A stretch of 64,000 bases of DNA from Methanothrix soehngenii GP6 (lineage in GTDB: Archaea; Halobacteriota; Methanosarcinia; Methanotrichales; Methanotrichaceae): NCBI RefSeq assembly GCF_000204415.1, contig NC_015416.1, positions 2,790,001 through 2,854,000 on the forward strand. Reading direction: 5' to 3'. A program made the position numbers and the translations under genes. Positions 50,113 to 64,000 of the stretch are shown here, piece by piece. Every line of letters starts with the position of its first letter. Positions within the stretch are counted from its first letter, which is position 1. The notes under the pieces were generated by a model, which saw nothing but the letters and a program-made list of their open reading frames with translations, ran no database searches and was not told the origin of the DNA.

Positions 50113-51054
50113 CTAAAAGCAGAATTCTCTGTACCTGCAGCTTCCTGGATTTGGGCACCTTCCAGGATCGCGCTCATAAAATATAAGGTCTTGTTTGCTG
50201 TCCCTTTCCTCAATGAACCACTGACGGACCTCATCGCTGATGATGAAGAAATCCCTCTCGATATGAGGTGTGGGGTGATTTTTTGGGAAGCTCAGGTAGA
50301 CTGTGCAGCCGATGTTGATGGGAACCTCATAAAGGCTCTCGTAGACCAAGGCATAGCCGGTGGCAGAGAGCCGATGAAAGTCCCTCTTCTGCCCGGTCTT
50401 CAGATCGCATATCAGCATCCCGCCCATATTGATGGCATCAGCAGAGAGGTTGCGGCTTAAGCCCAAGTACTTACCATCGAGCTTGTGCTCTACAACAAAA
50501 GGCAGAGCATGATTGATCAGAGAATCATCGCTGAGGTATTTATATTTGGCAAGATAGGCAAAGATGGAAGAAACTATTCTGCTCACCTCGAATGACCAGA
50601 GCTTTCTCAGGTTATCGCTGACGCTTTGGCCGGCCTCTGCAGAGGGTGAGAATTTTGTTTGCGAGAGCTGCTCATTAGCTTCAACTATGGCGTCATCAAG
50701 CCGTTCCATCAAGATACCTGGCAGCTCGGCACAGATGCTCATGCCTTCTTTGTAGATGAGCCTCTTGGCAGTGGGATAAAGCTCTGCCATAGCCTGATGG
50801 TAGATGCGCCCTGCCACCATCTCCTCGCTGGCCGGGACGCTGACCTTCTGCACATGTCTCAGATAAGTGTCCCGACCGGTCTCGCAGTACCTGTCAGAGA
50901 CCTCCCAGACGGGCATCAGTATATCATGTGGCGGCGATAGCTCAGAGCAGTGCCAGTTCCAGCCCCTGAGGTCCTCTGCTATTCCTCTCTCTCGTGTGCT
51001 CGGAATAAGCTTTTTTAAGAGATATTTGCGTTCTTCTTCGGAAAAGAAATACAT
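50113..51054 (-). CDS. csa1: Csa1 (Cas4-like adaptation protein, type I-A)
   Basis: 313 residues. RecB-type nuclease motifs are FVVEHKLDGKYLGLSRNLSA then MLICDLKTGQKRDFHRLSAT (D-x-K). A C-terminal Cys set (GRCPNPGSCRYREFCF) plus a Cys near residue 36 could hold an Fe-S cluster. Csa1 is a Cas4-superfamily protein found with type I-A adaptation genes and helps spacer capture. Last gene of the leftward cas1-cas2-cas4-csa1 set, 32 bases after cas4. Confidence 0.83.
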   Translation of the reverse strand: MYFFSEEERKYLLKKLIPSTRERGIAEDLRGWNWHCSELSPPHDILMPVWEVSDRYCETGRDTYLRHVQKVSVPASEEMVAGRIYHQAMAELYPTAKRLIYKEGMSICAELPGILMERLDDAIVEANEQLSQTKFSPSAEAGQSVSDNLRKLWSFEVSRIVSSIFAYLAKYKYLSDDSLINHALPFVVEHKLDGKYLGLSRNLSADAINMGGMLICDLKTGQKRDFHRLSATGYALVYESLYEVPINIGCTVYLSFPKNHPTPHIERDFFIISDEVRQWFIEERDSKQDLIFYERDPGRCPNPGSCRYREFCF

Positions 51055-51086
51055 GCACCCTCCAATAATGTATTGGAATAATTATA

Positions 51087-51698
51087 TTATTTCTCTGTAT
51101 GTGGTTTGGGCAAAATATTTCCAACACAGTACTTTCTATATTCGCAGTCTATGCATCGAGCGGAATTCCTGGTTCCTGCTGGCTCAATCTCATCCTCAAT
51201 TATCTGAGCTATTTTTTCGATCATCTTCAGAGTGCGTCTGCGGATCTCATCGCCAAAGTCAATCTGCACATTTTTCTGATCCCTACTGTAATGGATGAAG
51301 CCCCGTCGGACGATGGTCTTAAAGCTCTCTTCTACCAGAAGGGCATAGGCGGCAAGCTGATACTTGTGGTTCAGGTGGATGCTTCCCTTATGGGATTGGC
51401 CGAACTTGTAGTCTACAGGTATGAATTCCCGGTTGGTTCTCACCAGGTAGTCTAAGACCCCTCTCAGGCCGAGGGTGCTGCTTTCCATTTCCACCCTGAA
51501 CATTTTCTCTGCCTGGTCCAGCTCCGGATCGTAGAAGATCGCTCCCTTGCGGCGCTTCTCTTTGGCGGTGATTGAATCGTGCATCTCTATGCCCGTTTGC
51601 AGCTTCTGGTCAGGAGGTTTGGGAATGTGAAGGACATGGTCGAAGTAGATTATCTTTGGACAGTAAAGGTACTGCTTCACGTCGCTTACTGTGATCAT
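51087..51698 (-). CDS. cas4: Cas4 exonuclease
   Basis: 203 residues. MITVSDVKQYLYCPKIIYFD supplies the first Cys. GLRGVLDYLVRTNREFIPVD then YKFGQSHKG form the G-x2-D and D-x-K motifs of the RecB fold, and HKYQLAAYALLVEE is the QhxxY motif. The end CIDCEYRKYC gives three more Cys for the 4Fe-4S cluster. Trims prespacers and selects PAM during adaptation with Cas1-Cas2. Confidence 0.92.
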   Translation of the reverse strand: MITVSDVKQYLYCPKIIYFDHVLHIPKPPDQKLQTGIEMHDSITAKEKRRKGAIFYDPELDQAEKMFRVEMESSTLGLRGVLDYLVRTNREFIPVDYKFGQSHKGSIHLNHKYQLAAYALLVEESFKTIVRRGFIHYSRDQKNVQIDFGDEIRRRTLKMIEKIAQIIEDEIEPAGTRNSARCIDCEYRKYCVGNILPKPHTEK

Positions 51699-51780
51699 CT
51701 CTCATATCCTTCCTTCACGATTCTTCACTTGCCATCACTTGCCTTCACTTGTCTCTGCTTGTCTTCGCTTTCTCTCATGG

Positions 51781-52059
51781 CTAAAAGACGGACACGTCCT
51801 CCTCCTCGACCTCATAGATCTCGCCGATGCTATCTTTGAGGGAGAAACATTTGCTGCACATCGGATAGAACTGAATGTTTCCCTCCTTTTCGTGCATCAT
51901 TCTCTCCAGCCGCAGGCGAAGCTTTTCTCTGGTGTTGTGGTTCATGATGCCCCAAAAGGCGCTCTTCTGGATGCGGATGCAGCCGAAGTCCAGCAGAACT
52001 TTGGCCACCCTGGCTCTCAGGCTGTTATCACTGATATCGTAGATGATTATGGTATCCAC
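51781..52059 (-). CDS. cas2: Cas2
   Basis: 92 residues starting at the GTG at 52059, which has GGGAGGT five bases upstream. VDTIIIYDISDNSLRARVAK is the Cas2 first strand and helix with the conserved Asp; CIRIQKSAFWGIM is the second. An ATG at 52149 would add an atypical leader and overlap cas1 by 59 bases. Bridges two Cas1 dimers in the integrase. Starts 31 bases after cas1 ends. Confidence 0.9.
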   Translation of the reverse strand: MDTIIIYDISDNSLRARVAKVLLDFGCIRIQKSAFWGIMNHNTREKLRLRLERMMHEKEGNIQFYPMCSKCFSLKDSIGEIYEVEEEDVSVF

Positions 52060-52090
52060 TGGCACCTCCCAGGAATCATCACGAACTCCA

Positions 52091-53104
52091 TCACCATCTT
52101 GGGGTGAATGGCTCGTAACATGGCCTCTCTCCGCGGAGGAAGGTAGCAACAGATGATGCCTGAGAACGGATGATGTTTCTCAGGATCTGGCTCTTCTCTC
52201 GGTAGGTTATTCTCTCGTCCAGTCGGCCATAGAATGCCTTGGAGGCAATCTTTATGCCGTCCTTAGTCATGCGGCAGTCATCCTGAAAGTGGCCTTGCCG
52301 CATCTCCCTGGCTAGGCTCACCACCACCCTGTCCACCACCAGGGGCCTGAACTCCTCCATCATGTCGTAGACCAGCTTTTCTTTGCCTGGCCGGTCGGCA
52401 TGAAGAAAGCCGGCGTAGGGGTCCAGTCCTGCATAAAGGATTGCTGCCCAGACCTCCTGCTCCAGGAGATAGTAGCCGAAGTTCAAGAGAGAGTTGATCT
52501 GGTCCCTGGCTGCAGGGTAGTCTCGGCCGGGGAAGCTCCAGTCATCTGGGATCAGCTTGGCCCAGGTCCTCCAGTAGATCTCCGCCCCTATTCCCTCCAC
52601 TCCCATGATCTCTCCCCGGACATCATCCACCTTCCCTTTTATGAGATTGAGCCTGGGGATGAGCTCCTCTATCTGATTAGAATTATTGCGGAACTCTCCC
52701 CAAAGGTCCTGCCTTTCGCCCTTCCACTTTTTTGCGAATGATTTTAAGAGGGAGGCCTGATTTTTCAATTTGCCGCGGACGAAGGATCTGGCCAGGTTGG
52801 TTCCGCGGGAGTCGTTATAGGCATTGTACTGCTCCCTTCTGGTCTTCACTGTTCCTCCCAGGCTTGCCGGGATGAGCCTGGCCATGGGCTTGCCATAGTA
52901 GCTGGCGAAGACCACCTCGACACCCAGCTCGTCTGCCATCTGAATGGCATCGGAGGAGACAGAGATTCCGCTGCCCAGCACCAATATCTGCTCCACTCCC
53001 CGAGCAGGCACGAGCACATCGGGCAGATCCTTTCTAGTGATGCGAAACTGCTCGCTGGATTTGCCCAAGAATGTCCCCCGGTCAGAGAGGATGATGCGAG
53101 ACAT
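52091..53104 (-). CDS. cas1: Cas1 integrase
   Basis: 337 residues from MSRIILSDRGTFLGKSSEQF at 53104 (an in-frame ATG at 53149 is possible). Metal ligands are visible: Glu in MGVEGIGAEIYWRTWAKL, His in DPYAGFLHADRPGKEKLVYD and the acidic residues in MMEEFRPLVVDRVV. The N-terminal beta domain and C-terminal helical domain are complete. Inserts new spacers next to the leader. First gene of the leftward operon, divergent from cas3. Confidence 0.94.
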   Translation of the reverse strand: MSRIILSDRGTFLGKSSEQFRITRKDLPDVLVPARGVEQILVLGSGISVSSDAIQMADELGVEVVFASYYGKPMARLIPASLGGTVKTRREQYNAYNDSRGTNLARSFVRGKLKNQASLLKSFAKKWKGERQDLWGEFRNNSNQIEELIPRLNLIKGKVDDVRGEIMGVEGIGAEIYWRTWAKLIPDDWSFPGRDYPAARDQINSLLNFGYYLLEQEVWAAILYAGLDPYAGFLHADRPGKEKLVYDMMEEFRPLVVDRVVVSLAREMRQGHFQDDCRMTKDGIKIASKAFYGRLDERITYREKSQILRNIIRSQASSVATFLRGERPCYEPFTPRW

Positions 53105-53200
53105 TTGAGAAATATTGGTTTCATAGGGGATATTACTTTCGGATGGCAAGGAAAAAGTTTAAAGTGCTATGGGTTCATTTGAGGCCAGGATTGGAGTGCA
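53105..53200. promoter_or_regulatory. Divergent cas1/cas3 intergenic region
   Basis: 96 bases shared by the two cas operons. For cas3, a BRE/TATA-like stretch (ggaaaaagtttaaag, 53150-53164) lies about 37-50 bases before the ATG, and GGAGTG is at 53193-53198. The cas1 side contains AT-rich sequence within the possible longer cas1 start. No inverted operator is obvious. Confidence 0.45.
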
Positions 53201-55603
53201 ATGCTGAAACCATCATTGATTGACGGATACGCTTCCTTCTTCAAGGAAATCACAAGTTATTGCCCATATCCATATCAAGAGAAGGTCTTCTCATTGCTTG
53301 ATCGTGGAAAATCCGTAGTTCTTCGAGCCCCCACTGGCTCAGGAAAAACTCTATCAGTTATTATGCCTTATCTATATCTCAGAAAAAATAATGAGAAAAT
53401 GGCGGATAGAATAATCTACGCTTTACCTATGCGTGCTTTGGCTTTTGACCTTTATAATTCGACAATACAGACAGCCGAAAAGGCCGGATTTTGTGTAGTA
53501 GAAGATCCTGAGAAAAGGAGCGGCGAAGACAGAGATTCGGAGATTTGCATAACAATACAGACGGGAGAACTCCAAAACGATCACTTTTTTGAAGGAGATA
53601 TAATTTTCACAACTATTGATCAACTGCTATCTGGTTATCTAACATTGCCCGTATCGCTTCCAGATAGACTCGGAAATATAAATATAGGTGCAATAATTGG
53701 GTCGTTAATTGTATTTGATGAAGTACATCTGATGGAGTTTCAAAGATCATTCTTAACTGCAACAGAGATGATGAATAGATTCGAGGGCTTGGCCCAGTTT
53801 TTTGTTATGACTGCCACTTTGACTGAGCCCACGCAGAAATGGCTGGCAAAGCAAATAAAGGCTGAACCCATAACCTGTAGCATAAATGAGTTAAAGAGCG
53901 TACCCGGCTATGAGAAAAGGAGCAGAGTTTATTCATTTGAAAATAGTCCGATATCCTCAGACACAGTAATCAAGAATCACAGACAAAAGACGTTGGTCAT
54001 ATGTAATAGAGTAGATAAAGCCCAACAAATCTATTCAGAGCTCAAGGAAAAGCTCATAAATGCAGATACGAAAATAGCTCTTCTGCACAGTCGCTTTTTT
54101 AAGAGGGATAGGAGCGAGATAGAGAAGAATCTGCAGCTTTGGTTTGGTAAAAGATCTGAGGATGTAAATGCAATACTGGTTTCAACCCAAGTTGTTGAAG
54201 CAGGAATTGATATTTCGTGCAATACGATGCATACCGAGTTAGCTCCCGCAAATTCTCTTATCCAGCGTGCTGGGCGATGTGCAAGGTATTCAGGAACGGG
54301 TAATGTATTCATTCATGAAATAGAGGATCCATCTAATCCACTTCCTTACCCTAAAAATGAAGTTGATGCTACCAGAAAAGAGATAAAGAATTTCAGAGAA
54401 AAAGAGCTTGATCCAGATTTTGAGAAGGATTTGGTTGAACGAGTTCATGCTCCTCTTGATGATTCAAGGCTAATTGATTCTCTTCAGAATCGTCGCGGTG
54501 AAGTGAATGAGGCAATGGATCACGGTCATTCTTCCAGCATTCAAAAGCTGATAAGAGAGGTGGACAGCGTTAATATTATTCTCACTCCAAATCCTCATAG
54601 CGAAAATTTGGAGATTTCATGGCCCGAGATGCTATCTGTTCCGAGATCAACATTATACAAGTTGAAAAAGAAGGGTGCAGATGATTGGATCTTCAAGATT
54701 CCTATCTTCAGCGATGATGAAGAGTTCAAAGGCGTAAAATGGGAAAAGGTGGAATCTGTCCGAGATATTTCCTGGCTGGTTGCATTGAATCCCAAATTTG
54801 CCAGGTATTCTCAGGAAGTTGGCCTGATATTTGGTGAAGAGGGGACGAGGTGCATTATCCTAAATAAAAAATCCCCGTATAAAAGCTATAAATATTCTTG
54901 CGAATCCTTCCAGGAACATACCCATCGCGTCATCGCAGAGGCAAGATCTTTAATTCCTCTCTCTGATAAAGGAATAATGAAACTCTCCAAAAAGATGAGG
55001 CTGGACAGAAATCATTCCATTGAGAAGATGATCCTTCTTGCTTGTGCTCTTCATGATACTGGAAAATTAAGCGTCAGGTGGCAGGGCGCTATGAACAGAT
55101 GGCAAGGAATTTCAAATCCAAATGCAGAGCAATTTATCAAAGGATTGCCCTTAGCCCATACGACTTACGATCCAGTCAAAGATTGGATAAGAATGCAGGA
55201 GCTGAAGATACAGAAAGGTCCGCATGCTGCAGAGGGAGCATATGCAGTTTTTACAATGATATTTAAAGGAAGTCAAACTATGCTTGGCGACGGCGACGAT
55301 ACACAAAATATGGCAATTGGCATCATGGCAGCTATAGCCAGGCATCATGGGCCTAGGACATCTAATCTTCAACCGTTTGAGCTGATTCCGCAAGCGAAAA
55401 ACGTATTAAATGATGCTATGAAGACGTTGGAGATTGACTTAGGGGATATGGAAATTAGCGAAACACCAAACAAGGATGTAATCGATTCATTCAGGCAGTA
55501 TTTAAAAATTAGCGAAATAGATAATGGAATTTTCCTATACTGGTTATCAGTAAGAATCATTCGATTAGCTGACCAAAGAGCAACATCTAAGATTGGAGCC
55601 TGA
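53201..55603 (+). CDS. cas3: Cas3 helicase with C-terminal HD nuclease
   Basis: 800 residues. The helicase comes first: VVLRAPTGSGKTLSVIMPYL (Walker A, about 43-50), SLIVFDEVHLMEFQ (DEVH) and LIQRAGRCARYSG (motif VI). Near residue 620 the HD domain follows: LACALHDTGKLSVRWQG (HD plus Lys), later IARHHGPR and IIRLADQRAT. Most Cas3 proteins have HD at the N-terminus, and type I-A splits the two; helicase-then-HD in one chain is the less common order. It degrades target DNA recruited by Cascade. Starts the rightward operon; cas8 begins one base after its stop codon. Confidence 0.92.
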   Translation: MLKPSLIDGYASFFKEITSYCPYPYQEKVFSLLDRGKSVVLRAPTGSGKTLSVIMPYLYLRKNNEKMADRIIYALPMRALAFDLYNSTIQTAEKAGFCVVEDPEKRSGEDRDSEICITIQTGELQNDHFFEGDIIFTTIDQLLSGYLTLPVSLPDRLGNINIGAIIGSLIVFDEVHLMEFQRSFLTATEMMNRFEGLAQFFVMTATLTEPTQKWLAKQIKAEPITCSINELKSVPGYEKRSRVYSFENSPISSDTVIKNHRQKTLVICNRVDKAQQIYSELKEKLINADTKIALLHSRFFKRDRSEIEKNLQLWFGKRSEDVNAILVSTQVVEAGIDISCNTMHTELAPANSLIQRAGRCARYSGTGNVFIHEIEDPSNPLPYPKNEVDATRKEIKNFREKELDPDFEKDLVERVHAPLDDSRLIDSLQNRRGEVNEAMDHGHSSSIQKLIREVDSVNIILTPNPHSENLEISWPEMLSVPRSTLYKLKKKGADDWIFKIPIFSDDEEFKGVKWEKVESVRDISWLVALNPKFARYSQEVGLIFGEEGTRCIILNKKSPYKSYKYSCESFQEHTHRVIAEARSLIPLSDKGIMKLSKKMRLDRNHSIEKMILLACALHDTGKLSVRWQGAMNRWQGISNPNAEQFIKGLPLAHTTYDPVKDWIRMQELKIQKGPHAAEGAYAVFTMIFKGSQTMLGDGDDTQNMAIGIMAAIARHHGPRTSNLQPFELIPQAKNVLNDAMKTLEIDLGDMEISETPNKDVIDSFRQYLKISEIDNGIFLYWLSVRIIRLADQRATSKIGA

Positions 55604-55604
55604 A

Positions 55605-57323
55605 ATGAGCCAGAGACTTTGTTTTAAAATCCCAAGGGAGACCAATACTTATGCCGATGTCCTTATGGCCTTGGGTACGGCGAGCCTACTGAATGAGATT
55701 TATGGAGATGAGGCCAGAACTACGATAGAGGATAGAGGTGATAATCTTTCCATCGAAGTCTCGAGCGATAAAGGTTTAGAGTTTTTAGATACTTTTACGC
55801 GACTTGACATAGGATATCCTTTTGTAAAACAAAAGAATGATGAGATAATACCTAACGGCGTAGACGATGTTTTTGATTATGAAAAGAATAAAGAAATTGA
55901 AGAGGCATATAATAAATTCATTAAGACATCTGGAAAAAGGAAAAATAAAATCAGCAATAAAATGATTGATTCTGGATTTGATAAGCCTTATGAACCCGAT
56001 CCTAATCTCAAGCTTCACAAAATTTTGGCATCTATGCGCAAAGGTTGGAAAAGCGACAAAGAGTTTCATGAGTACTTTATTAACAATAGAGAGAAGATAT
56101 CAAAATTAGCGATGATCAACCTTAGGCACCTGTCAGATCCATGCTTTGAGAAATGCAGTTCTGATGATCTTGACAAAATCGTATCTGGATCTCAGGTTCT
56201 TCTACCAATTGGCGGTAAAGGTGTCAATAGGTCAAAGCCAGATTCTACAGGCAAGTCTGGACTGCCGTCTGATTTCATCGATTGGTTTTCAGAATGGATG
56301 AAGTATCGTGGCATGTTTAAGTTCCTGCTTCCATATAGGAATGGAGATGATTTTAAGTTTTTAGTTATAGTTCCTAAGGATATCTCATATAATTCCGTGG
56401 TATCGATACATAATGATCTCTTTAAAATGAATTTATGGGGCGGAATAAAACTGGATATTCAGGCTACGCTCAGTCTTGCTAAAATTCTAGTCAATCATTC
56501 AGAAGAATACGATAAAGAAAAAGGTTCTTTCAAGATGCTAAATAGGCGTCCCAACCAGGTAATCGAAGGATTATATCAGGCCTATTTTAAAAGCATGGGA
56601 ACGGCTGCTTCACTGATGAACTATTCATTCATCGGGTTGCCTGGATGGTTCACAATCGATGATAATAAAACCGCGCATGAATTTATGGATATTTTAGATG
56701 AGCACGGAAAATGCATTGGTGCTCTTCAAGAAGAGATCTCCAGTGATATTCCCCTTCTCCAGGATTATCGTAATTTTCTATCCTCAGGAGATTATAGGCA
56801 TTTTCTGGAGTTTTTATCACTTTTTGGAACATATGTCATGCAGAGGAGAGAGAAAAACAAATGGGTAATGCAATTTACAGTTCAAAACCTAAGGAGGATT
56901 TTTATGGTCGATAAGGATTACTCTGAGATAATATCTGATGAAGGATTTTTGAATTTGGCATCCGCTATACGAAGAGCCACTGTTAATGCACAATATCGTA
57001 AAGCACAAGGCAGGCGAGATTGGGATATCAAGTATGGATTAGCCCAGGATTGGAAGCGAGTAGCAGAGCAGCCTGACAAGCTGGTTATTGCTATATCGGA
57101 ATTTGTCCAACAATATAACGCAGAAAATGCAAGACATGCAGAAGAGAATAAAGAAAGAAGAAAAAATATAACAACAAGAGATCTGGACCAAGTTCTAAAC
57201 TTAATCAAGAATTACGGCTCATTCCTGGTTGGAATGCTTCTCTTAGCCTACGGATATGCAAGAGATGTCAAAGAAACGGATGAATCAAATAGTACTGAAA
57301 TTAAAGAAGGTGAAATCAAATGA
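55605..57323 (+). CDS. cas8: Cas8-like large subunit
   Basis: 572 residues from the ATG at 55605 (GGAG seven bases upstream, inside the cas3 end). Assignment rests mainly on position between cas3 and cas7 and on length. RLCFKIPRETNTYADVLMAL at the start, NYSFIGLPGWFTIDD in the middle and a C-terminal helical part (about 470-570, DWKRVAEQPDKLVIAISEFV) that could replace a separate Csa5 small subunit. No nuclease motif is seen. It would recognise PAM and hold the R-loop. Exact Cas8 subtype not resolved (I-A or I-B like). Confidence 0.7.
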   Translation: MSQRLCFKIPRETNTYADVLMALGTASLLNEIYGDEARTTIEDRGDNLSIEVSSDKGLEFLDTFTRLDIGYPFVKQKNDEIIPNGVDDVFDYEKNKEIEEAYNKFIKTSGKRKNKISNKMIDSGFDKPYEPDPNLKLHKILASMRKGWKSDKEFHEYFINNREKISKLAMINLRHLSDPCFEKCSSDDLDKIVSGSQVLLPIGGKGVNRSKPDSTGKSGLPSDFIDWFSEWMKYRGMFKFLLPYRNGDDFKFLVIVPKDISYNSVVSIHNDLFKMNLWGGIKLDIQATLSLAKILVNHSEEYDKEKGSFKMLNRRPNQVIEGLYQAYFKSMGTAASLMNYSFIGLPGWFTIDDNKTAHEFMDILDEHGKCIGALQEEISSDIPLLQDYRNFLSSGDYRHFLEFLSLFGTYVMQRREKNKWVMQFTVQNLRRIFMVDKDYSEIISDEGFLNLASAIRRATVNAQYRKAQGRRDWDIKYGLAQDWKRVAEQPDKLVIAISEFVQQYNAENARHAEENKERRKNITTRDLDQVLNLIKNYGSFLVGMLLLAYGYARDVKETDESNSTEIKEGEIK

Positions 57324-57975
57324 AAATAAACTCTATAAGCATATCTGGACTATTAACCCTTAATATGCATGCATTAAATAATGAGGGCAGTGAAGGAAAC
57401 TATCTCCAGACAAGGATGGTTGAAATAGTAGATGAAAAAGGAATCGCTCATTCGGTGAATGCCATCTCGGGAGACATGTTTAAACATATTCAGGCCGATC
57501 ATCTATATTCCCTTGCACGTGAAGAAAACATATCCCTTTGCGATGGCTGCTCGAAGGACAATCCAAATAGAATAAATGTTGATAGTGGCTTTGTCCAAGG
57601 ATTTTCCGAAGGAGCAAAAGATGCAGAAATTCTTGATAAATTATTGGAAAAATGTGCAGGAGATGACATCGAGGGAATTCTCATCACGCAGGAGATAGGA
57701 AAGAAAAAAAGAGCCATCGGCAGGAAATCGATAATAGAGTTCGGTTGGGCGGTTGGTGAGCCGGAGAAAACAAAAACCGAGTCTTATTTTCATGTCAAGT
57801 TTGATCAGACCGAGAGAGCCAGTGGAAGAGGAGATGAGAGTACTGGCGCCAACATAGGGCAAAATATTTTTCACAGGCCCGCGTCAAGCGGCAGATATGC
57901 AATAATCTTAAATGCCGATTTATGTCGAATAGGTTTCCCATGGAAAACCAAAAAAAATCAAATGCAAGAGGCTAG

Positions 57976-59295
57976 CTATCCACCTCCATCAGATGACCTT
58001 TTCTGGTCGGGCTTGTTCACAGAAATATCTTCAAGCGCTCGCAAGAGAGCCTTCTTCCGGCTACTATCGCTCATTCCATAAAAGGCATCTACAATTGCAG
58101 CTACCTTATCCGTCAGATGCTCATCCTTCAAAGAAGGTTCATGGCAGGACTCATTTCGACCTTTTTTCCTCTTTCTGCAATCAACCTCTTGATAGAACTC
58201 CTGGTTGATCAGAAGATGATAAATCAGACAGATGAGTTTCCTGGCTACGGCAACGATTGCCACATTGTGCTCCTTCTTTTTGCTCAGCCTCTTGTAGAAT
58301 CTGGACAGCCCTGTATTTTTCATATTAGCTATTGTCTGGGCAGCCTCGACAAGTACAACTCGGATATACTTGGAACCGCGCTTTGTGATCCCGCATTTCC
58401 TCTTTTTGCCGGCAGATTCATTTTCTCCAGGATTGAGGCCACACCATTTCGCCAGCTGTTCAGGGGTCTGAAAATCTCTGTAATTTCCGATCTCTGACAG
58501 GATGACCGAACCTGAGATAAATGCGATTCCAGGAATGGACATAACGATAGCCAGATCCTTGCTCTTATTTTGAATCTTTTTCAGAATGTTTAGGCTTGTC
58601 TTCTCTATTTTGGATTCGACATTGTCCATGATTTCAAGAGAATCGCTGATCAGCATTCGATTTGTCTCGCTCAGTTCATTGGCAAGTGCTGATCTGATCT
58701 CGTCTTGCTTTTTCCTGATCTTTCCGGAGGGTATGCCTTTCAGGATCTCTTCGACGGGCTTGTCTTCAGCCAGACCTCTTATGATATGTGTTCCTGATTT
58801 GCAGAATATGTCGTCCATAGAAGAGCTGAGTTTAATGCCGTTTGATGAGAGATATTTGTGTATCCGATTCTTGAACTGAGTTCGTGTCTTGACATATCCT
58901 GACCTGGCTCGCGTTAGGTTCCTGAGCTCTCGGTCTTCATCGGAAAAAACCCGAGATCTCTTGATTTGATTATTCAAGCACAGAGTTGCAATACGCTTTG
59001 AATCTTTTGAATCTGATTTATCGTTTGGAATGGACTTTATCTGCAGCGGATTGGCAACAATGGTATCTATGGTTCGGCTCAGAACATCATAAATCGGGAT
59101 CCAATAGACTCCTGTAGCTTCAAATGCAACCTGTTCGCATTTGTTGTCTGCAAGCCAGTTTCTGAATCTATCAAGCTCGGATTTTGTTGTCCCAAAATTC
59201 TCTCGAATCGACGGCACTTCGTCGCCAGTTATTGTGGCAACGATCAGATCTTTATGGACATCTGCACCGCAAACTCTTTCTCTTCGTTTTTTCAT
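57976..59295 (-). CDS. IS110-family transposase (DEDD)
   Basis: 439 residues from the ATG at 59295 (KKRRERVCGADVHKDLIVAT; first Asp in GADVHKD). VAFEATGVYWIPIYDVL carries the Glu, and ANPLQIKSIPNDKSDSKDSK the two later Asp. The C-terminal Tnp20 domain has IPGIAFISGSVILSEIGNYR with the catalytic Ser and LAKWCGLNPGENESAGKKRK. The frame stays open to 59463, but that stretch overlaps the presumed non-coding end. Family members use a structured RNA to pick targets. Frame intact. Confidence 0.88.
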   Translation of the reverse strand: MKKRRERVCGADVHKDLIVATITGDEVPSIRENFGTTKSELDRFRNWLADNKCEQVAFEATGVYWIPIYDVLSRTIDTIVANPLQIKSIPNDKSDSKDSKRIATLCLNNQIKRSRVFSDEDRELRNLTRARSGYVKTRTQFKNRIHKYLSSNGIKLSSSMDDIFCKSGTHIIRGLAEDKPVEEILKGIPSGKIRKKQDEIRSALANELSETNRMLISDSLEIMDNVESKIEKTSLNILKKIQNKSKDLAIVMSIPGIAFISGSVILSEIGNYRDFQTPEQLAKWCGLNPGENESAGKKRKCGITKRGSKYIRVVLVEAAQTIANMKNTGLSRFYKRLSKKKEHNVAIVAVARKLICLIYHLLINQEFYQEVDCRKRKKGRNESCHEPSLKDEHLTDKVAAIVDAFYGMSDSSRKKALLRALEDISVNKPDQKRSSDGGG

Positions 59296-59526
59296 ATATG
59301 TCTCTGCCTGATATGGGCAGATGATCATTCCCTTATATGGGATAATTTCCCATACGCGTTCTATGACGCAGTCCCGTATTCGAGGGATATTGGCTGGTTT
59401 CAATCGCGGGATCAAGCGTCCCATAAACTTGTCAGCCTTCACTGCCCATATCAGACTTAACATGGACGGATTAAAATATCTGGTTTTCCATCCGTCACGT
59501 GTGAGCCCCTGCCTGGGCTCATGGGC
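59296..59526 (-). ncRNA. Candidate bridge-RNA region of the IS110 element
   Basis: The non-coding end upstream of the transposase, where IS110 elements encode their bridge RNA. It contains GGTTTCAAT at 59396-59404, identical to the nine bases of the rebuilt target site in cas7 that span the junction. It also has an 8-bp stem (GTGAGCCC / GGGCTCAT, 59501-59522) near the terminus. RNA ends and fold are not determined. Confidence 0.45.
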
Positions 59527-59845
59527 GTTTCAATGATATCACTTGCACCTACTCAATAGACACCGAAGAGCGCAAGAGAAGGACCGCAATTGCCCTTAAA
59601 AGCATACTTGCAGCCATCCTCAAGCCAGCTGGAGCGCACCGAAACACGCAAAATCCGCATATCGTCAATTTCCAGGGCTGCATTACTGCAAGCTCTTCGA
59701 TGCTTCCCGCTCCAACGGTGAGCGCCCTTAATGAGAATTACCTGGGAGAAATAGATGGCATATGCATTACATTGAATGAACTAAGCCCAAACTCAATAAC
59801 CAAATGGGATTTTAATAGCCTTAATGAATTCGGGTAGTCACCCCC

Positions 59846-60454
59846 TTATGCGTTGATACTTTCAGGAACCACTAGCAACATCATCATCTCGTCAATAGTC
59901 CAGATATGATCAGTTATGCCAGCTGCCATAGCTGGAGATCTGGGATCCCATTGTCTTTGATCGCTATTGGATTCTTCTCGCAAGGATTTGAGAGGTCTTC
60001 CATAGTTATAAACCATATCCTCCAAGGCACAAGAAGCCTTAAGCATCTCCTCTTCTTTTGAGAATGATAAGGTTTTTCGAACCATTCTTCCATTCATTTG
60101 TCTCGAAGTTAGATTGGTCCTTTCGACATATGCGGTATTCAATCCCAAAAAACTTGGTACCTCGTTAGGATCTCCATAGACTACTCTGTGAGTGATGCGA
60201 ATCAATCTTCCACCTGATCGATGCTTTGTAACCTGGAGACATCTCCATCCAGGCTGCGGTTGTTTTCGAGTTGGAGGTCTTCCCCTGCCAGCGTATTCAG
60301 GCGACTTCCCCCAGGTTTCAAGCATTGCTTCAGGATAACTATCATTTCCGTCGCTCGATATTGCAGGAGGTTCAATCGGATTGCAGCGATTCTTTATTTG
60401 CAGCATCATAGCCACTGCAACTTCCTCTTCATTCTTTCCTATCGCACGTCCCAC
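59846..60454 (-). CDS. IS1 transposase, catalytic part (ORF B)
   Basis: The frame is open upstream of its first ATG and reads PEEVDRGTFWRGTAIDVDTR with an active-site Asp, then GRAIGKNEEEVAVAMM, ISSDGNDSYPEAML (second Asp) and GLNTAYVERTNLTSRQMNGR with the catalytic Glu. Translation probably arrives by a -1 shift from ORF A at GGGGGAAAAAGC, so the ATG at 60454 is unlikely to be used. Confidence 0.85.
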   Translation of the reverse strand: MGRAIGKNEEEVAVAMMLQIKNRCNPIEPPAISSDGNDSYPEAMLETWGKSPEYAGRGRPPTRKQPQPGWRCLQVTKHRSGGRLIRITHRVVYGDPNEVPSFLGLNTAYVERTNLTSRQMNGRMVRKTLSFSKEEEMLKASCALEDMVYNYGRPLKSLREESNSDQRQWDPRSPAMAAGITDHIWTIDEMMMLLVVPESINA

Positions 60455-60474
60455 TCTCAGCCTGGTATCGACAT

Positions 60475-60954
60475 CTATCGCGGTACCTCGCCAGAATGTG
60501 CCTCGATCGACCTCTTCAGGATGGTTGCTTTTTCCCCCTTATGTCCTACATAGGTCCACATCGCATCGAGCTGAACTCGGGTCAGATGGTAGTTAGCCAG
60601 AAGCAAAGCCTCAATCTCTTCAACATGAGCCGATGCTTTGCGAAGCCAATCCACAATAGTCTCTTCCTTTATTCCTTTCACTCTATGGATGGCGGCAAGG
60701 CTATTTCTTTCCGCAAGCATAGCCAGACATTCGAGGATCTCTTTTGGGCTGTGATGCAGGCCATAAAAGATAGTCCCTTTATTTCCTACAAATACTCTGC
60801 CACATGTTTTGCATTTCAAACGTTGCGTGCCCTTGGAAGTGCGGCCGTATCGGACTATGTTTCCGTGATCCACTTTGCCATAGTCAGGACAGTCTTTATT
60901 CCAGCAAAACGAACCAGCAATTGCCAGTCTACCTGCCTTCATTGCATTCCCCAA
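60475..60954 (-). CDS. IS1 transposase, zinc-finger and HTH part (ORF A)
   Basis: 159 residues. A zinc finger (C-x4-C in SFCWNKDCPDY, then LKCKTCGRVFVGNKGT) is followed by a helix-turn-helix (NSLAAIHRVKGIKEETIVDW) and the start of the catalytic fold (VQLDAMWTYVGHKG, first Asp). After the G5A5 run it leaves the conserved frame and ends IEAHSGEVPR, as expected for an InsA-type product. Confidence 0.85.
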   Translation of the reverse strand: MGNAMKAGRLAIAGSFCWNKDCPDYGKVDHGNIVRYGRTSKGTQRLKCKTCGRVFVGNKGTIFYGLHHSPKEILECLAMLAERNSLAAIHRVKGIKEETIVDWLRKASAHVEEIEALLLANYHLTRVQLDAMWTYVGHKGEKATILKRSIEAHSGEVPR

Positions 60955-61046
60955 GCTAAATATGCAATGAAGGAATATAAACTTAATTAGGGGGGACTAC
61001 CTGAATTCGCATCAAAGATTAAAGAAATAATAGAATCAATTGAGAT

Positions 61047-61790
61047 ATGAGCATGACTCTGAGCAATCAAGAGTGGCTGGTCTTGGAATATTTGCCTACT
61101 AGCTTATTCACTCTTAAAATTTCAACGGCCACAAATAAAGGAGGGAAAACGCTTTTCGTTCCCACACCTTATTCAATTAAGCTATCATTCATAAATGCAG
61201 CTTTCCGTATCGGCGGAGAGGGCTTAGCCAGGGAGATATTCGGAGATATCAAGGGTTGTGATATTCGCTTATCTCCTCCAGAGAGGTTATATGTTCTTAA
61301 CACCTTTATAAAAATTCTTGATGAGAGCAGGGATAAAAATTCAGATCCCTATCAATCCACGATCGCCTACCGAGAGTTTTGCTATTTCCAGGGAATGCTT
61401 AATATAGCTTTATCTCTGACCAATTACCCTAACATAAATATTGAAAAAATAAAAGAATTAGCAGCTCATATAAATTATTTTGGAAAACGTGGAAGTTTTT
61501 TCCAATATACGAATAGTAGAACGATTCCAGATTTGCCACCTGGCTTCACAGTGAAATCAACAGATCCAGAAGGAAATATTAAGGGATATGAGATAGTTCA
61601 ACCGCTAGATGATATTGGGGAGACAGACTCAAAAGACTTATTTGATCATATAAATACATTTTCGAATAAGAAGATTGAAAGAGGCAAACATAGAATATTT
61701 GTCCTTACATATATACCCTATAAAATGGAGAAAAGCTCTAACAGATACACTGCATATGTGAATCCATACAGATGTCAAGATGCTGAATAG
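61047..61790 (+). CDS. cas5: Cas5-like Cascade subunit
   Basis: 247 residues. The start overlaps the cas7 stop (ATGA, 61047-61050) once the IS1 element is removed. GGKTLFVPTPYSIKLSFINA resembles the Cas5 strand-turn-helix that caps the crRNA 5' handle, followed by AAFRIGGEGLAREIFGDIKG and a C-terminal beta part (GKHRIFVLTYIPYKMEKSSN). Similarity is weak, so the name leans on the cas8-cas7-cas5 order. It is downstream of two insertions and may be poorly transcribed. Ends 104 bases before the first intact repeat. Confidence 0.68.
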   Translation: MSMTLSNQEWLVLEYLPTSLFTLKISTATNKGGKTLFVPTPYSIKLSFINAAFRIGGEGLAREIFGDIKGCDIRLSPPERLYVLNTFIKILDESRDKNSDPYQSTIAYREFCYFQGMLNIALSLTNYPNINIEKIKELAAHINYFGKRGSFFQYTNSRTIPDLPPGFTVKSTDPEGNIKGYEIVQPLDDIGETDSKDLFDHINTFSNKKIERGKHRIFVLTYIPYKMEKSSNRYTAYVNPYRCQDAE

Positions 61791-61819: not shown

Positions 61820-62842
61820 GAAAGCAATCGGGAAAATGTAAACCAAGCCCTGCAATCAGTTTGTCTTTCGCCTATTATTGGATCATAATGCTTGGTTTCA
61901 ATTCCCTTTTCATCGGGATAGGCTCTGCAATTCGAAAATATCCCAATCGAGATGTGGAACGGCACCGAATGTTTCAATTCCCTTTTCATCGGGATAGGCT
62001 CTGCAATGAAGCGGAAGGTATCACCATTGGAGAAATCCAAGCGGGGTTTCAATTCCCTTTTCATCGGGATAGGCTCTGCAATACACAGAATATGCTGGCG
62101 GGGGCCTGGGTCACACTCACACGTTTCAATTCCCTTTTCATCGGGATAGGCTCTGCAATAGCTGATCAACGATTCTGCCAGCCAGGGCTTCAAAAAGGTT
62201 TCAATTCCCTTTTCATCGGGATAGGCTCTGCAATCGGCTCATACGGCATGGATGCCCTAACCAAGATGGTGTTTCAATTCCCTTTTCATCGGGATAGGCT
62301 CTGCAATCATATCATCAATCCTGAATTAGTATTATGCCCGCCCGGGTTTCAATTCCCTTTTCATCGGGATAGGCTCTGCAATGCTCTGGCCGCACCCCGG
62401 ACAATGGCCAAGAAGATGGCGGTGTTTCAATTCCCTTTTCATCGGGATAGGCTCTGCAATGTGGCTGCAGATCGTATATCTGATCATCTCAGAATAATGA
62501 GTTTCAATTCCCTTTTCATCGGGATAGGCTCTGCAATATCATGCATCTCTATGCGGGCCGTTCGGAGATCCTCGTGTTTCAATTCCCTTTTCATCGGGAT
62601 AGGCTCTGCAATATATTCCCTCGGTACATCTCATACCTTGCGGACGCTCCAAGTTTCAATTCCCTTTTCATCGGGATAGGCTCTGCAATCGGGAACCAAT
62701 AGTTCTTGGCGTCCTGGCAAATGCCGTCAGTTTCAATTCCCTTTTCATCGGGATAGGCTCTGCAATGAAGACCTACTATCAACATTAGATACAGAAATTA
62801 CAAGAGTTTCAATTCCCTTTTCATCGGGATAGGCTCTGCAAT
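61820..62842 (-). CRISPR. CRISPR array, 13 identical 37-bp repeats plus a degenerate distal repeat
   Basis: Repeats start at 61895, 61971, 62046, 62123, 62198, 62271, 62346, 62424, 62501, 62576, 62653, 62730 and 62806. On the plus strand each begins GTTTCAATTCCC and ends GGCTCTGCAAT, all identical. The twelve spacers between them are 36-41 nt. On the minus strand the repeat ends ATTGAAAC, the usual archaeal 8-nt crRNA handle, after a TCCC/GGGA stem, so transcription should run leftward. At 61845-61856 AAGCCCTGCAAT matches one repeat end at 10 of 12 positions, exactly 38 nt from repeat 1: a decayed distal repeat. The array lies beside cas5. Confidence 0.96.
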
Positions 62843-62941
62843 ATATTTGGAAAAATCCATAGCAGATCTAGCGTTGCGTTTGGAGTGAACCCCTCCGAGT
62901 GGACAAAAAGTTAAGCAATGCCGACTCATGGAGGGAAGTGC

Positions 62942-63271
62942 ATGAAGAAGACCAGGCGGCGTTACGACCGGGACTTCAAGATATCAGTATTAGCCGAACT
63001 TGAGGCAGGCAAGCCACTTGCTCAGATCGCCCGCGAATATGGCATCCATCCGAGTCTTCCTTGCCGATGGAAGGCAGAGCTGGCTGAAAATCCCGAAAAA
63101 GCATTCATGGGTAACGGAAACAAGTACAAAGATCAGGCGAAGATTGCAGAATTGGAGAGACTTCTGGGCCAGGCTCATGCTGAAATTGACCTTTTAAAAA
63201 AAGCCTTCGCCATGACCCAGAAGAAGGTCCGCGAGGAGAGACGAAAGCCGATGTTGAGGGACGACATATGA
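62942..63271 (+). CDS. IS3-family OrfA (HTH)
   Basis: 109 residues from the ATG at 62942, chosen for GGAGGGA six bases before it; the ATG at 62918 is an alternative. RRRYDRDFKISVLAELEAGK then LAQIAREYGIHPSLPCRWKA is the helix-turn-helix that binds the ends. A leucine zipper follows (IAELERLLGQAHAEIDLLKK). Ends at ATGA over orfB, where a -1 shift makes the OrfAB transposase in IS3 elements. Confidence 0.9.
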   Translation: MKKTRRRYDRDFKISVLAELEAGKPLAQIAREYGIHPSLPCRWKAELAENPEKAFMGNGNKYKDQAKIAELERLLGQAHAEIDLLKKAFAMTQKKVREERRKPMLRDDI

Positions 63272-64000
63272 TCATTCAGGAAGCTCAATCAGATGGCCTT
63301 CTGTTGCCAATATCTCACTCCTGCTTGGCGCTGGATGTGAGTCGCAGCGGTTACTACGAGTGGTTGAAGCGGTCCGAAAAGTTCACTGCGGAGAATAGCG
63401 AATCTTCGGATCTGGTTAACCAGATTCAAGAGATAGCTTTGGAGTTTCCTTATTACGGGTACAGGAGAATTACAGCAGAACTTCAAAATCGCGGCTATGC
63501 GGTCAACCATAAGCGCGTGCTGAGGCTCATGCGCCAGGAGAAGTTGCTTTGCTATAAGAAGAAGTTCAAGCCGGTAACAACCGATTCCACTCATGGTCTG
63601 CCGGTCTATCCTAACCTTCTAAAAGGCAGGGAAATCACGGGACTGAACCAGGCATGGGCTTCTGATATCACTTATGTCCAGCTGCAGCACGAGCATATCT
63701 TTCTCGCGGTTATCCTGGATCTCTACAGCAGAAAGTGCATCGGGTGGGAGCTGAGCAGGAGCATAAGAAGCGATCTGGCCATGAGTGCTCTGGCAAAGGC
63801 ATTGAAGAACCGTTCCAAGGAATCCCTTGAGGGTCTTATTCATCATTCTGATCAAGGCGTTCAGTATGCGTCCAAGGATTATGTAGACTGTCTTAAGGCG
63901 CATGACATCCAGATCAGCATGTCGAGAAAAGGAAATCCTTATGACAATGCTTTTGCTGAGAGTTTTATAAAAACACTGAAGGTCGAGGAGGTATATCTCA
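63268..64000 (+). CDS. IS3-family OrfB transposase (partial)
   Basis: At least 244 residues, open at the right edge. A HTH_21 segment (SGYYEWLKR then FPYYGYRRITAELQNRGYAV) precedes the rve integrase core: LNQAWASDITYVQLQHEHIF (first Asp), GLIHHSDQGVQYASKDYVDC (second Asp) and SRKGNPYDNAFAESFIKTLK with the catalytic Glu (D,D35E). The frame is intact as far as it can be seen. Confidence 0.92.
   Translation, partial: MIIQEAQSDGLLLPISHSCLALDVSRSGYYEWLKRSEKFTAENSESSDLVNQIQEIALEFPYYGYRRITAELQNRGYAVNHKRVLRLMRQEKLLCYKKKFKPVTTDSTHGLPVYPNLLKGREITGLNQAWASDITYVQLQHEHIFLAVILDLYSRKCIGWELSRSIRSDLAMSALAKALKNRSKESLEGLIHHSDQGVQYASKDYVDCLKAHDIQISMSRKGNPYDNAFAESFIKTLKVEEVYL

What the first reader, a model, noticed from the sequence alone, without database searches (positions are those of the whole stretch)
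57320..61050. cas7 of a type I CRISPR system split by two nested-in-one-gene insertions and fully reconstructable
Removing 57938-59531 (IS110 type, one GTTTC kept) and 59833-61009 (IS1 type plus one TGAATTCG) gives a continuous 319-codon Cas7 that starts ATGA on cas8 and ends ATGA on cas5. The pieces show no frameshift or stop of their own. So Cascade was probably disabled recently, in two independent events, while cas1, cas2, cas4, cas3 and cas5 stayed open. This is a snapshot of CRISPR immunity being lost, or silenced while adaptation could continue.
Basis: partly seen in the sequence, partly recalled or inferred. Interest (0 to 1): 0.8.

Follow-up and report, generated by a model that had tools for sequence, protein, structure and literature searches.

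The report
RNA-guided IS110 jumps into CRISPR repeats
In a methane-making archaeon a key immunity gene (cas7) really is cut in three by two jumping elements, and the more telling part is that one of them carries an RNA guide spelling AUUGAAAC, the short tag shared by most archaeal CRISPR repeats, so that it and its relatives also land inside CRISPR arrays.

Summary
Taking out 57938-59531 and 59833-61009 restores one 319-codon type I-A cas7 that matches DevR/Csa2 over its whole length. A related Methanothrix genome has the intact gene in a collinear operon (78% identity). The pieces show no decay, and the inserts belong to families of six and three identical full-length copies, so the loss is recent. 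IS insertion into cas genes is already published. The genome also keeps a second, uninterrupted type I-B system, so only I-A interference is lost.

The unexpected part is the IS110 element. All its copies sit at GTTTC|AAT (ATTGAAAC on the element's strand), the conserved crRNA tag of CRISPR repeats. The RNA region upstream of its transposase carries AUUGAAAC at the guide position, and in 15 relatives the guide changes together with the insertion site. Two copies sit inside the I-B array here. Relatives and 84-86 bp miniature derivatives sit inside arrays with other repeats in five more Methanothrix genomes, probably six. Thermus IS1000, an unrelated IS110, lands at the same repeat end in opposite orientation. 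The cas7 hit is best explained by a chance copy of this 8-mer. Nothing shows a preference for arrays beyond the 8-mer.

The parts
57320..57937 (+). cas7 (Csa2/DevR) piece 1, codons 1-206, including the GTTTC at the IS110 junction
   Evidence: DevR profile 1-198 in own genome; continuous with pieces 2 and 3 after excision
57938..59531 (-). IS110-family element, 1594 bp as cut here; transposase on the minus strand
   Evidence: 6 full-length copies and 1 truncated copy in the genome, ~100% identical; junctions GTTTC|CCATGG at the left and GGGCGTTTC|AAT at the right of the full copies
57976..59463 (-). IS110 transposase ORF, 495 aa as listed; homology to the family starts near residue 63, so the real start may be near 59295
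   Evidence: PF01548 and PF02371 over cut-off; NF033542 258.8 bits, cut-off 140
59306..59456 (-). putative bridge RNA (element positions 76-226) with a closing stem of at least 13 bp
   Evidence: single-sequence fold; consensus structure over 15 relatives with some compensatory pairs
59397..59404 (-). target guide AUUGAAAC in the bridge RNA
   Evidence: equals the target of all own copies; guide and target covary in relatives, shuffle p <= 5e-5
59341..59355 (-). putative donor guide region containing ATGGGAAA, matching the right-end junction CATGG|GAAAC
   Evidence: sequence match; inference, not tested by covariation
59532..59832 (+). cas7 piece 2; begins with AAT of the target and ends with the first copy of the IS1 target duplication
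   Evidence: DevR profile 200-267
59825..59832 (.). IS1 target duplication TGAATTCG, copy 1
59833..61001 (-). IS1-family element, 1169 bp, ends GGTAGTC..
   Evidence: 3 identical copies with 8-9 bp duplications; ORF 60475-60954 matches IS1 transposase below the curated cut-off; ORF 59846-60454 matches DDE_Tnp_IS1 weakly
61002..61009 (.). IS1 target duplication, copy 2
61010..61050 (+). cas7 piece 3 with stop codon overlapping the cas5 start
55593..57323 (+). cas8a, open
   Evidence: PADLOC Cas8a 2.9e-63
61047..61790 (+). cas5a, open
   Evidence: PADLOC Cas5a 6.3e-95
53201..55603 (+). cas3, helicase with C-terminal HD, open
50113..53149 (-). csa1/cas4, cas4, cas2, cas1, open
61892..62842 (-). 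distal 13 repeats of the I-A CRISPR array (78 repeats in all, continuing outside the window); each ends in ATTGAAAC on the transcribed strand
   Evidence: direction of transcription inferred from the repeat end and the position of the leader-like stretch

Best explanation
A type I-A cas7 was inactivated by two separate recent insertions. One is an IS1-family element, which leaves an 8-bp duplication and chose its site loosely. The other is an IS110-family element whose RNA guide reads AUUGAAAC. Any ATTGAAAC in the genome is a possible landing site, and most such sites are the conserved ends of CRISPR repeats; cas7 happened to hold one, created by a synonymous T in GGT-TTC-AAT. Without Cas7 the I-A surveillance complex should not assemble, so I-A interference is off, while its adaptation genes, Cas6, array and leader side, and a separate I-B system remain uninterrupted by comparison. 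Shown by sequence: the insertions, the guide/target match, and the insertions into CRISPR repeats. Inferred: RNA expression, RNA-guided transposition, and loss of I-A function.
For: The empty site gives full-length DevR/Csa2, and an intact collinear orthologue exists in G017. All own copies sit at GTTTC|AAT with no conserved flank beyond the 8-mer. The guide AUUGAAAC lies in a folded region upstream of the transposase. Guide and target covary in 15 relatives: 72 of 75 positions identical against 34 when shuffled. Two own copies are in the I-B array. Relatives or miniature derivatives lie inside arrays with several different repeats in G017, G024, G027, G029 (two) and G030, and probably G034. 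AUUGAAA(C/G) is the conserved repeat end and crRNA tag (PMC3783184, PMC4005679).
Against: No expression or transposition data. The second half-guide (right target) is not convincingly assigned. In this genome arrays are not hit more often per ATTGAAAC site than other sites (2 of 100 against 4 of 56, Fisher p 0.19). Six of 28 left ends in the genus are not preceded by ATT. Most relatives come from fragmented MAGs.
Confidence: 0.86

Rival explanations
1. Adaptive switch-off: cells lacking I-A interference were selected (self-targeting, useful plasmid), and the IS insertions were simply the available mutations.
For: IS knock-outs of cas genes are known and can be beneficial (PMC10359306). The I-A locus and its array hold four insertions in all: two in cas7, an IS3-type and an IS256-type element in the array.
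Against: The I-B cas genes are uninterrupted. The IS110 site is fully explained by its 8-mer, and the same element sits at unrelated sites. Nothing shows selection.
Confidence: 0.15
2. The IS110 targets arrays and cas7 only by coincidence: ATTGAAAC is just an 8-mer guide like any other, and CRISPR repeats dominate the available sites. (This concerns why the guide is what it is; it is compatible with the best explanation.)
For: Per-site hit rate is not higher in arrays. Most insertions across the genus are outside arrays.
Against: An unrelated IS110, Thermus IS1000, lands at the same repeat end in the opposite orientation at 8 of 10 loci examined, in three repeat types, which points to the repeats being good sites.
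Confidence: 0.5
3. The three cas7 pieces still give working Cas7 by trans-assembly or precise excision.
For: Both excisions would restore the frame exactly, and IS110 elements can excise precisely (known for the family).
Against: Two elements would have to leave. Piece 1 runs into IS sequence (253-aa frame). The stored sequence shows only the occupied allele.
Confidence: 0.04
4. Assembly artefact at repeated IS copies.
For: Both elements are multi-copy, and copies can be misplaced in assembly.
Against: Both have correct junctions with proper target sequence or duplication, and the flanking pieces join to an orthologue-supported gene.
Confidence: 0.03

Closest known systems
Natural IS insertions into cas genes (PMC10359306)
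   Same: An IS sits inside a cas gene, with a duplication, and removes interference; one of that paper's cases is cas7 hit by IS10.
   Different: Here the system is archaeal type I-A, two elements of different families hit one gene, and one of them is RNA-guided; the word IS110 does not occur in the main text of that paper.
IS621 / ISEc21 type IS110 elements with bridge RNA or seekRNA (PMC11208160, PMC11187229)
   Same: DEDD transposase, non-coding RNA region upstream of the gene, guide matching the target, and a repetitive genomic element as target (REP for IS621).
   Different: The guide here spells the CRISPR repeat tag; CRISPR repeats as an IS110 target were not found in the passages read from those two papers or in the searches made. 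The half-guide that pairs with the bottom strand lies on the 3' side of its loop, which needs checking against IS621.
Thermus IS1000A/B (PMC6352166)
   Same: IS110 element abutting a CRISPR repeat at GTTTC/GTCGC/GTTGC followed by AATCC; a GGATTGA that could pair with that side of the target lies in its upstream RNA region.
   Different: Orientation is opposite and transposases share only 27% over about 105 aa. The paper read the 32-bp match as IS pieces recruited into CRISPR, not as repeats serving as target.

Membership tests
Type I-A CRISPR-Cas | Cas8a, Cas5a and Csa2-type Cas7 | tested here: met
   PADLOC Cas8a, Cas5a, Cas7a; PF01905 on joined Cas7
Type I-A CRISPR-Cas | Open reading frame for Cas7 | tested here: not met
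   split into three pieces; no other DevR in the genome. It is a type I-A locus with a broken effector gene, not a working I-A system
Type I-A CRISPR-Cas | Small subunit Csa5 | not tested
   not searched for
IS110 family | DEDD N-terminal and Transposase_20 C-terminal domains | tested here: met
   PF01548 and PF02371 over cut-off; NF033542 over cut-off
IS110 family | Non-coding region upstream of the transposase with guide matching the target | tested here: met
   guide/target covariation, p <= 5e-5; consensus structure
IS110 family | Site-specific insertion without an ordinary target duplication | tested here: met
   same 8-mer at all copies
IS110 family | Circular intermediate and RNA-bound transposase | not testable with these tools
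   needs experiment
IS1 family | 8-9 bp target duplication and short terminal inverted repeats | tested here: met
   TGAATTCG at the window copy and its own duplication at each of the other two copies; both ends begin GGTAGTC
IS1 family | IS1 transposase over the curated score | tested here: inconclusive
   66.6 bits against cut-off 100 for the first ORF; 18.3 against 24.1 for the second

The most novel reading that the evidence does not exclude
CRISPR repeat ends are a recurrent, selected landing site for RNA-guided IS110 elements: at least two unrelated lineages (Methanothrix and Thermus IS1000) have guides tuned to the repeat end/crRNA tag, which gives them many dispensable sites in almost any host and lets them break up arrays and, occasionally, cas genes.
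Probability: 0.35. Interest if true: 0.8.

Novelty: new variant of a known kind. Interest (0 to 1): 0.6.

Why it matters
The split cas7 alone is one more case of an IS knocking out a cas gene. That an RNA-guided transposon carries the CRISPR repeat tag as its guide, has spread as full copies and miniature derivatives through one genus, and enters arrays with different repeats joins two RNA-guided systems in a way I did not find described. It makes a testable claim: IS110 guides can be read to predict which CRISPR arrays they will invade. It also offers a different reading of the Thermus IS1000/CRISPR match published in 2019.

Tried and rejected
Rfam gave no match for the element. The first array counter failed because of a wrong pattern and was redone. 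Preference of the element for arrays over other copies of the 8-mer was tested and not found in this genome. The idea that the two array insertions are one event copied by recombination was set aside because all four neighbouring spacers differ. The idea of a type III system using the I-A array was checked with the RAMP family and found no match. Spread outside the genus was tested in 238 genomes of the class: only Methanothrix. The empty-site check of the other own copies finished for only two of them.

Full report
The claim about cas7 holds. Joining 57320-57937, 59532-59832 and 61010-61050 gives 319 codons and a stop without interruption. The product matches DevR/Csa2 over profile positions 1-267 of 270 and the I-A Cas7 models. 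The neighbours are Cas8a and Cas5a with Csa1, Cas4, Cas2, Cas1 and Cas3, so the locus is type I-A. In a same-genus genome (G017) the operon is collinear and cas7 is intact: 328-aa open frame, 78% identical, aligned through both junctions. Thus IS-free alleles exist in relatives. pN/pS for the cas7 pieces is 0.19, like cas5 (0.195), cas8 (0.16) and cas3 (0.21), so there is no sign of drift since the break; synonymous sites are nearly saturated, so this test is coarse.

The two insertions are independent. The IS1-type element is 1169 bp with an 8-bp duplication (TGAATTCG), and two other identical copies have their own duplications. Its transposase scores fall below the curated cut-offs, so the family name rests on ends, size, duplication and partial domain matches. 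The IS110 element is 1594 bp, with five other full-length copies at ~100% and one truncated copy in the genome. The genome is 3,008,626 + 18,019 bp; from memory these are the sizes of Methanothrix soehngenii (concilii) GP6, which I could only check as a taxonomy name.

Every full IS110 copy is flanked by GTTTC on one side and GTTTCAAT on the other; the truncated copy keeps only the GTTTC side. Beyond these eight bases the flanks are unrelated. Read along the element, the target is ATTGAAAC. This is the conserved 3' end of CRISPR repeats and the 8-nt crRNA tag, AUUGAAA(C/G) (PMC3783184; PMC4005679). In this genome 100 of about 156 such sites are CRISPR repeats. Two copies are in fact inside the repeats of the I-B array at C1:2745.7-2750.5 kb, each next to different spacers.

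The mechanism is visible in the element. The stretch between its left end and the transposase folds into a closed structure and carries AUUGAAAC in one loop. When 15 related IS110 elements of this and other genomes are aligned, the same loop position changes from element to element and in each case follows the sequence flanking that element: 72 of 75 compared positions are identical, against 34 on average after shuffling pairs, p <= 5e-5. The guide/target pairs were read off the alignment by eye before scoring. This is the bridge RNA/seekRNA principle of IS110 (PMC11208160, PMC11187229), here shown by natural covariation and not by experiment. A second loop holds ATGGGAAA, which matches the element's own right-end junction and is a likely donor guide (inference).

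Relatives confirm entry into arrays. Left ends of this group were found 28 times in ten Methanothrix genomes; 22 are preceded by ATT, and 7 lie in arrays by a strict count, 8 with the G029 C16 case that the count missed because of a one-base indel. The arrays have different repeats (GTTTCAATCCTTGTTTT.., GTTTCAATGGGGCC.., GTTTCAATCCCTGTCGG..). A further diverged copy in G034 lies next to a two-repeat array. Many copies are miniature elements of 84-86 bp that keep both ends and no gene. A search of 238 genomes of the class found the group only in Methanothrix. The exact guide pattern occurs in only four other stored contigs, one labelled uncultured archaeon and the others Methanothrix.

An independent case is Thermus IS1000. 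In eight of ten plasmid loci examined its right end abuts AATCC of a CRISPR repeat, in three repeat types, and GGATTGA, which could pair with the right side of that target, lies in its upstream region. Several of these loci are orthologous plasmids, so the number of separate events is smaller than eight. Its orientation is opposite and its transposase only distantly similar. A 2019 paper noticed the 32-bp match but read it as IS pieces taken up by CRISPR (PMC6352166).

What remains of immunity: no second DevR Cas7, no RAMP family match, but an uninterrupted I-B cas locus with Cas6, Cas3, Cas5, Cas7/Csh2, Cas8b, Cas4 and Cas1. The I-A array has 78 repeats, an uninterrupted stretch on its leader side and a Cas6 gene beyond it, with an IS3-type and a mutator/IS256-type element inside it. 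So 'I-A interference off, the rest of CRISPR present' is the fair reading.

Limits: no RNA or transposition data; right-target guide not assigned; arrays not preferred per site in this genome; several MAG contigs end near the insertions. IS knock-out of cas genes itself is known (PMC10359306). Literature searches were confined to the open library and found no account of IS110 guides matching CRISPR repeats.

Noticed in passing
window 62860-64000 and L030 1-1170: An IS3-type element (rve integrase core) is inserted in a spacer region of the I-A array; the array resumes behind it.
   Followed up: partly
L030 2514-3850 (C1:2855.5-2856.9 kb): A mutator/IS256-type element lies inside a spacer of the I-A array, in one copy of a duplicated block of spacers whose other copy is in the window (about 62140-62345).
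   Followed up: partly
L024 7690-12461 (C1:2745.7-2750.5 kb): The I-B array has repeated spacer blocks around two IS110 copies, suggesting recombination within the array.
   Followed up: partly
L067-L084, L098, L099: 84-86 bp miniature IS110 derivatives (GAAACGCCCATGAGCCC...CAGTTTCCCATGG|GAAAC), some splitting CRISPR repeats in Methanothrix MAGs.
   Followed up: yes
L101 2900-4776 (NZ_AP024271.1): Thermus IS1000B exactly inside a CRISPR repeat, with a truncated second IS1000 also ending at a repeat.
   Followed up: yes
L025 7776-9370 (C1:1261776): Another identical IS110 copy interrupts a 432-codon open frame that joins up when the element is removed.
   Followed up: partly
window 59306-59456: The half-guide equal to the top strand of the target lies on the 3' side of its loop, with a GUUU on the 5' side; this order resembles the one reported for IS1111 more than ISEc21, although the RNA region is upstream of the gene.
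   Followed up: no
window 53201-55603: The Cas3 of this I-A locus is one protein with helicase first and HD domain last, and its best NCBIfam match is the type I-G Cas3g model (below cut-off).
   Followed up: no
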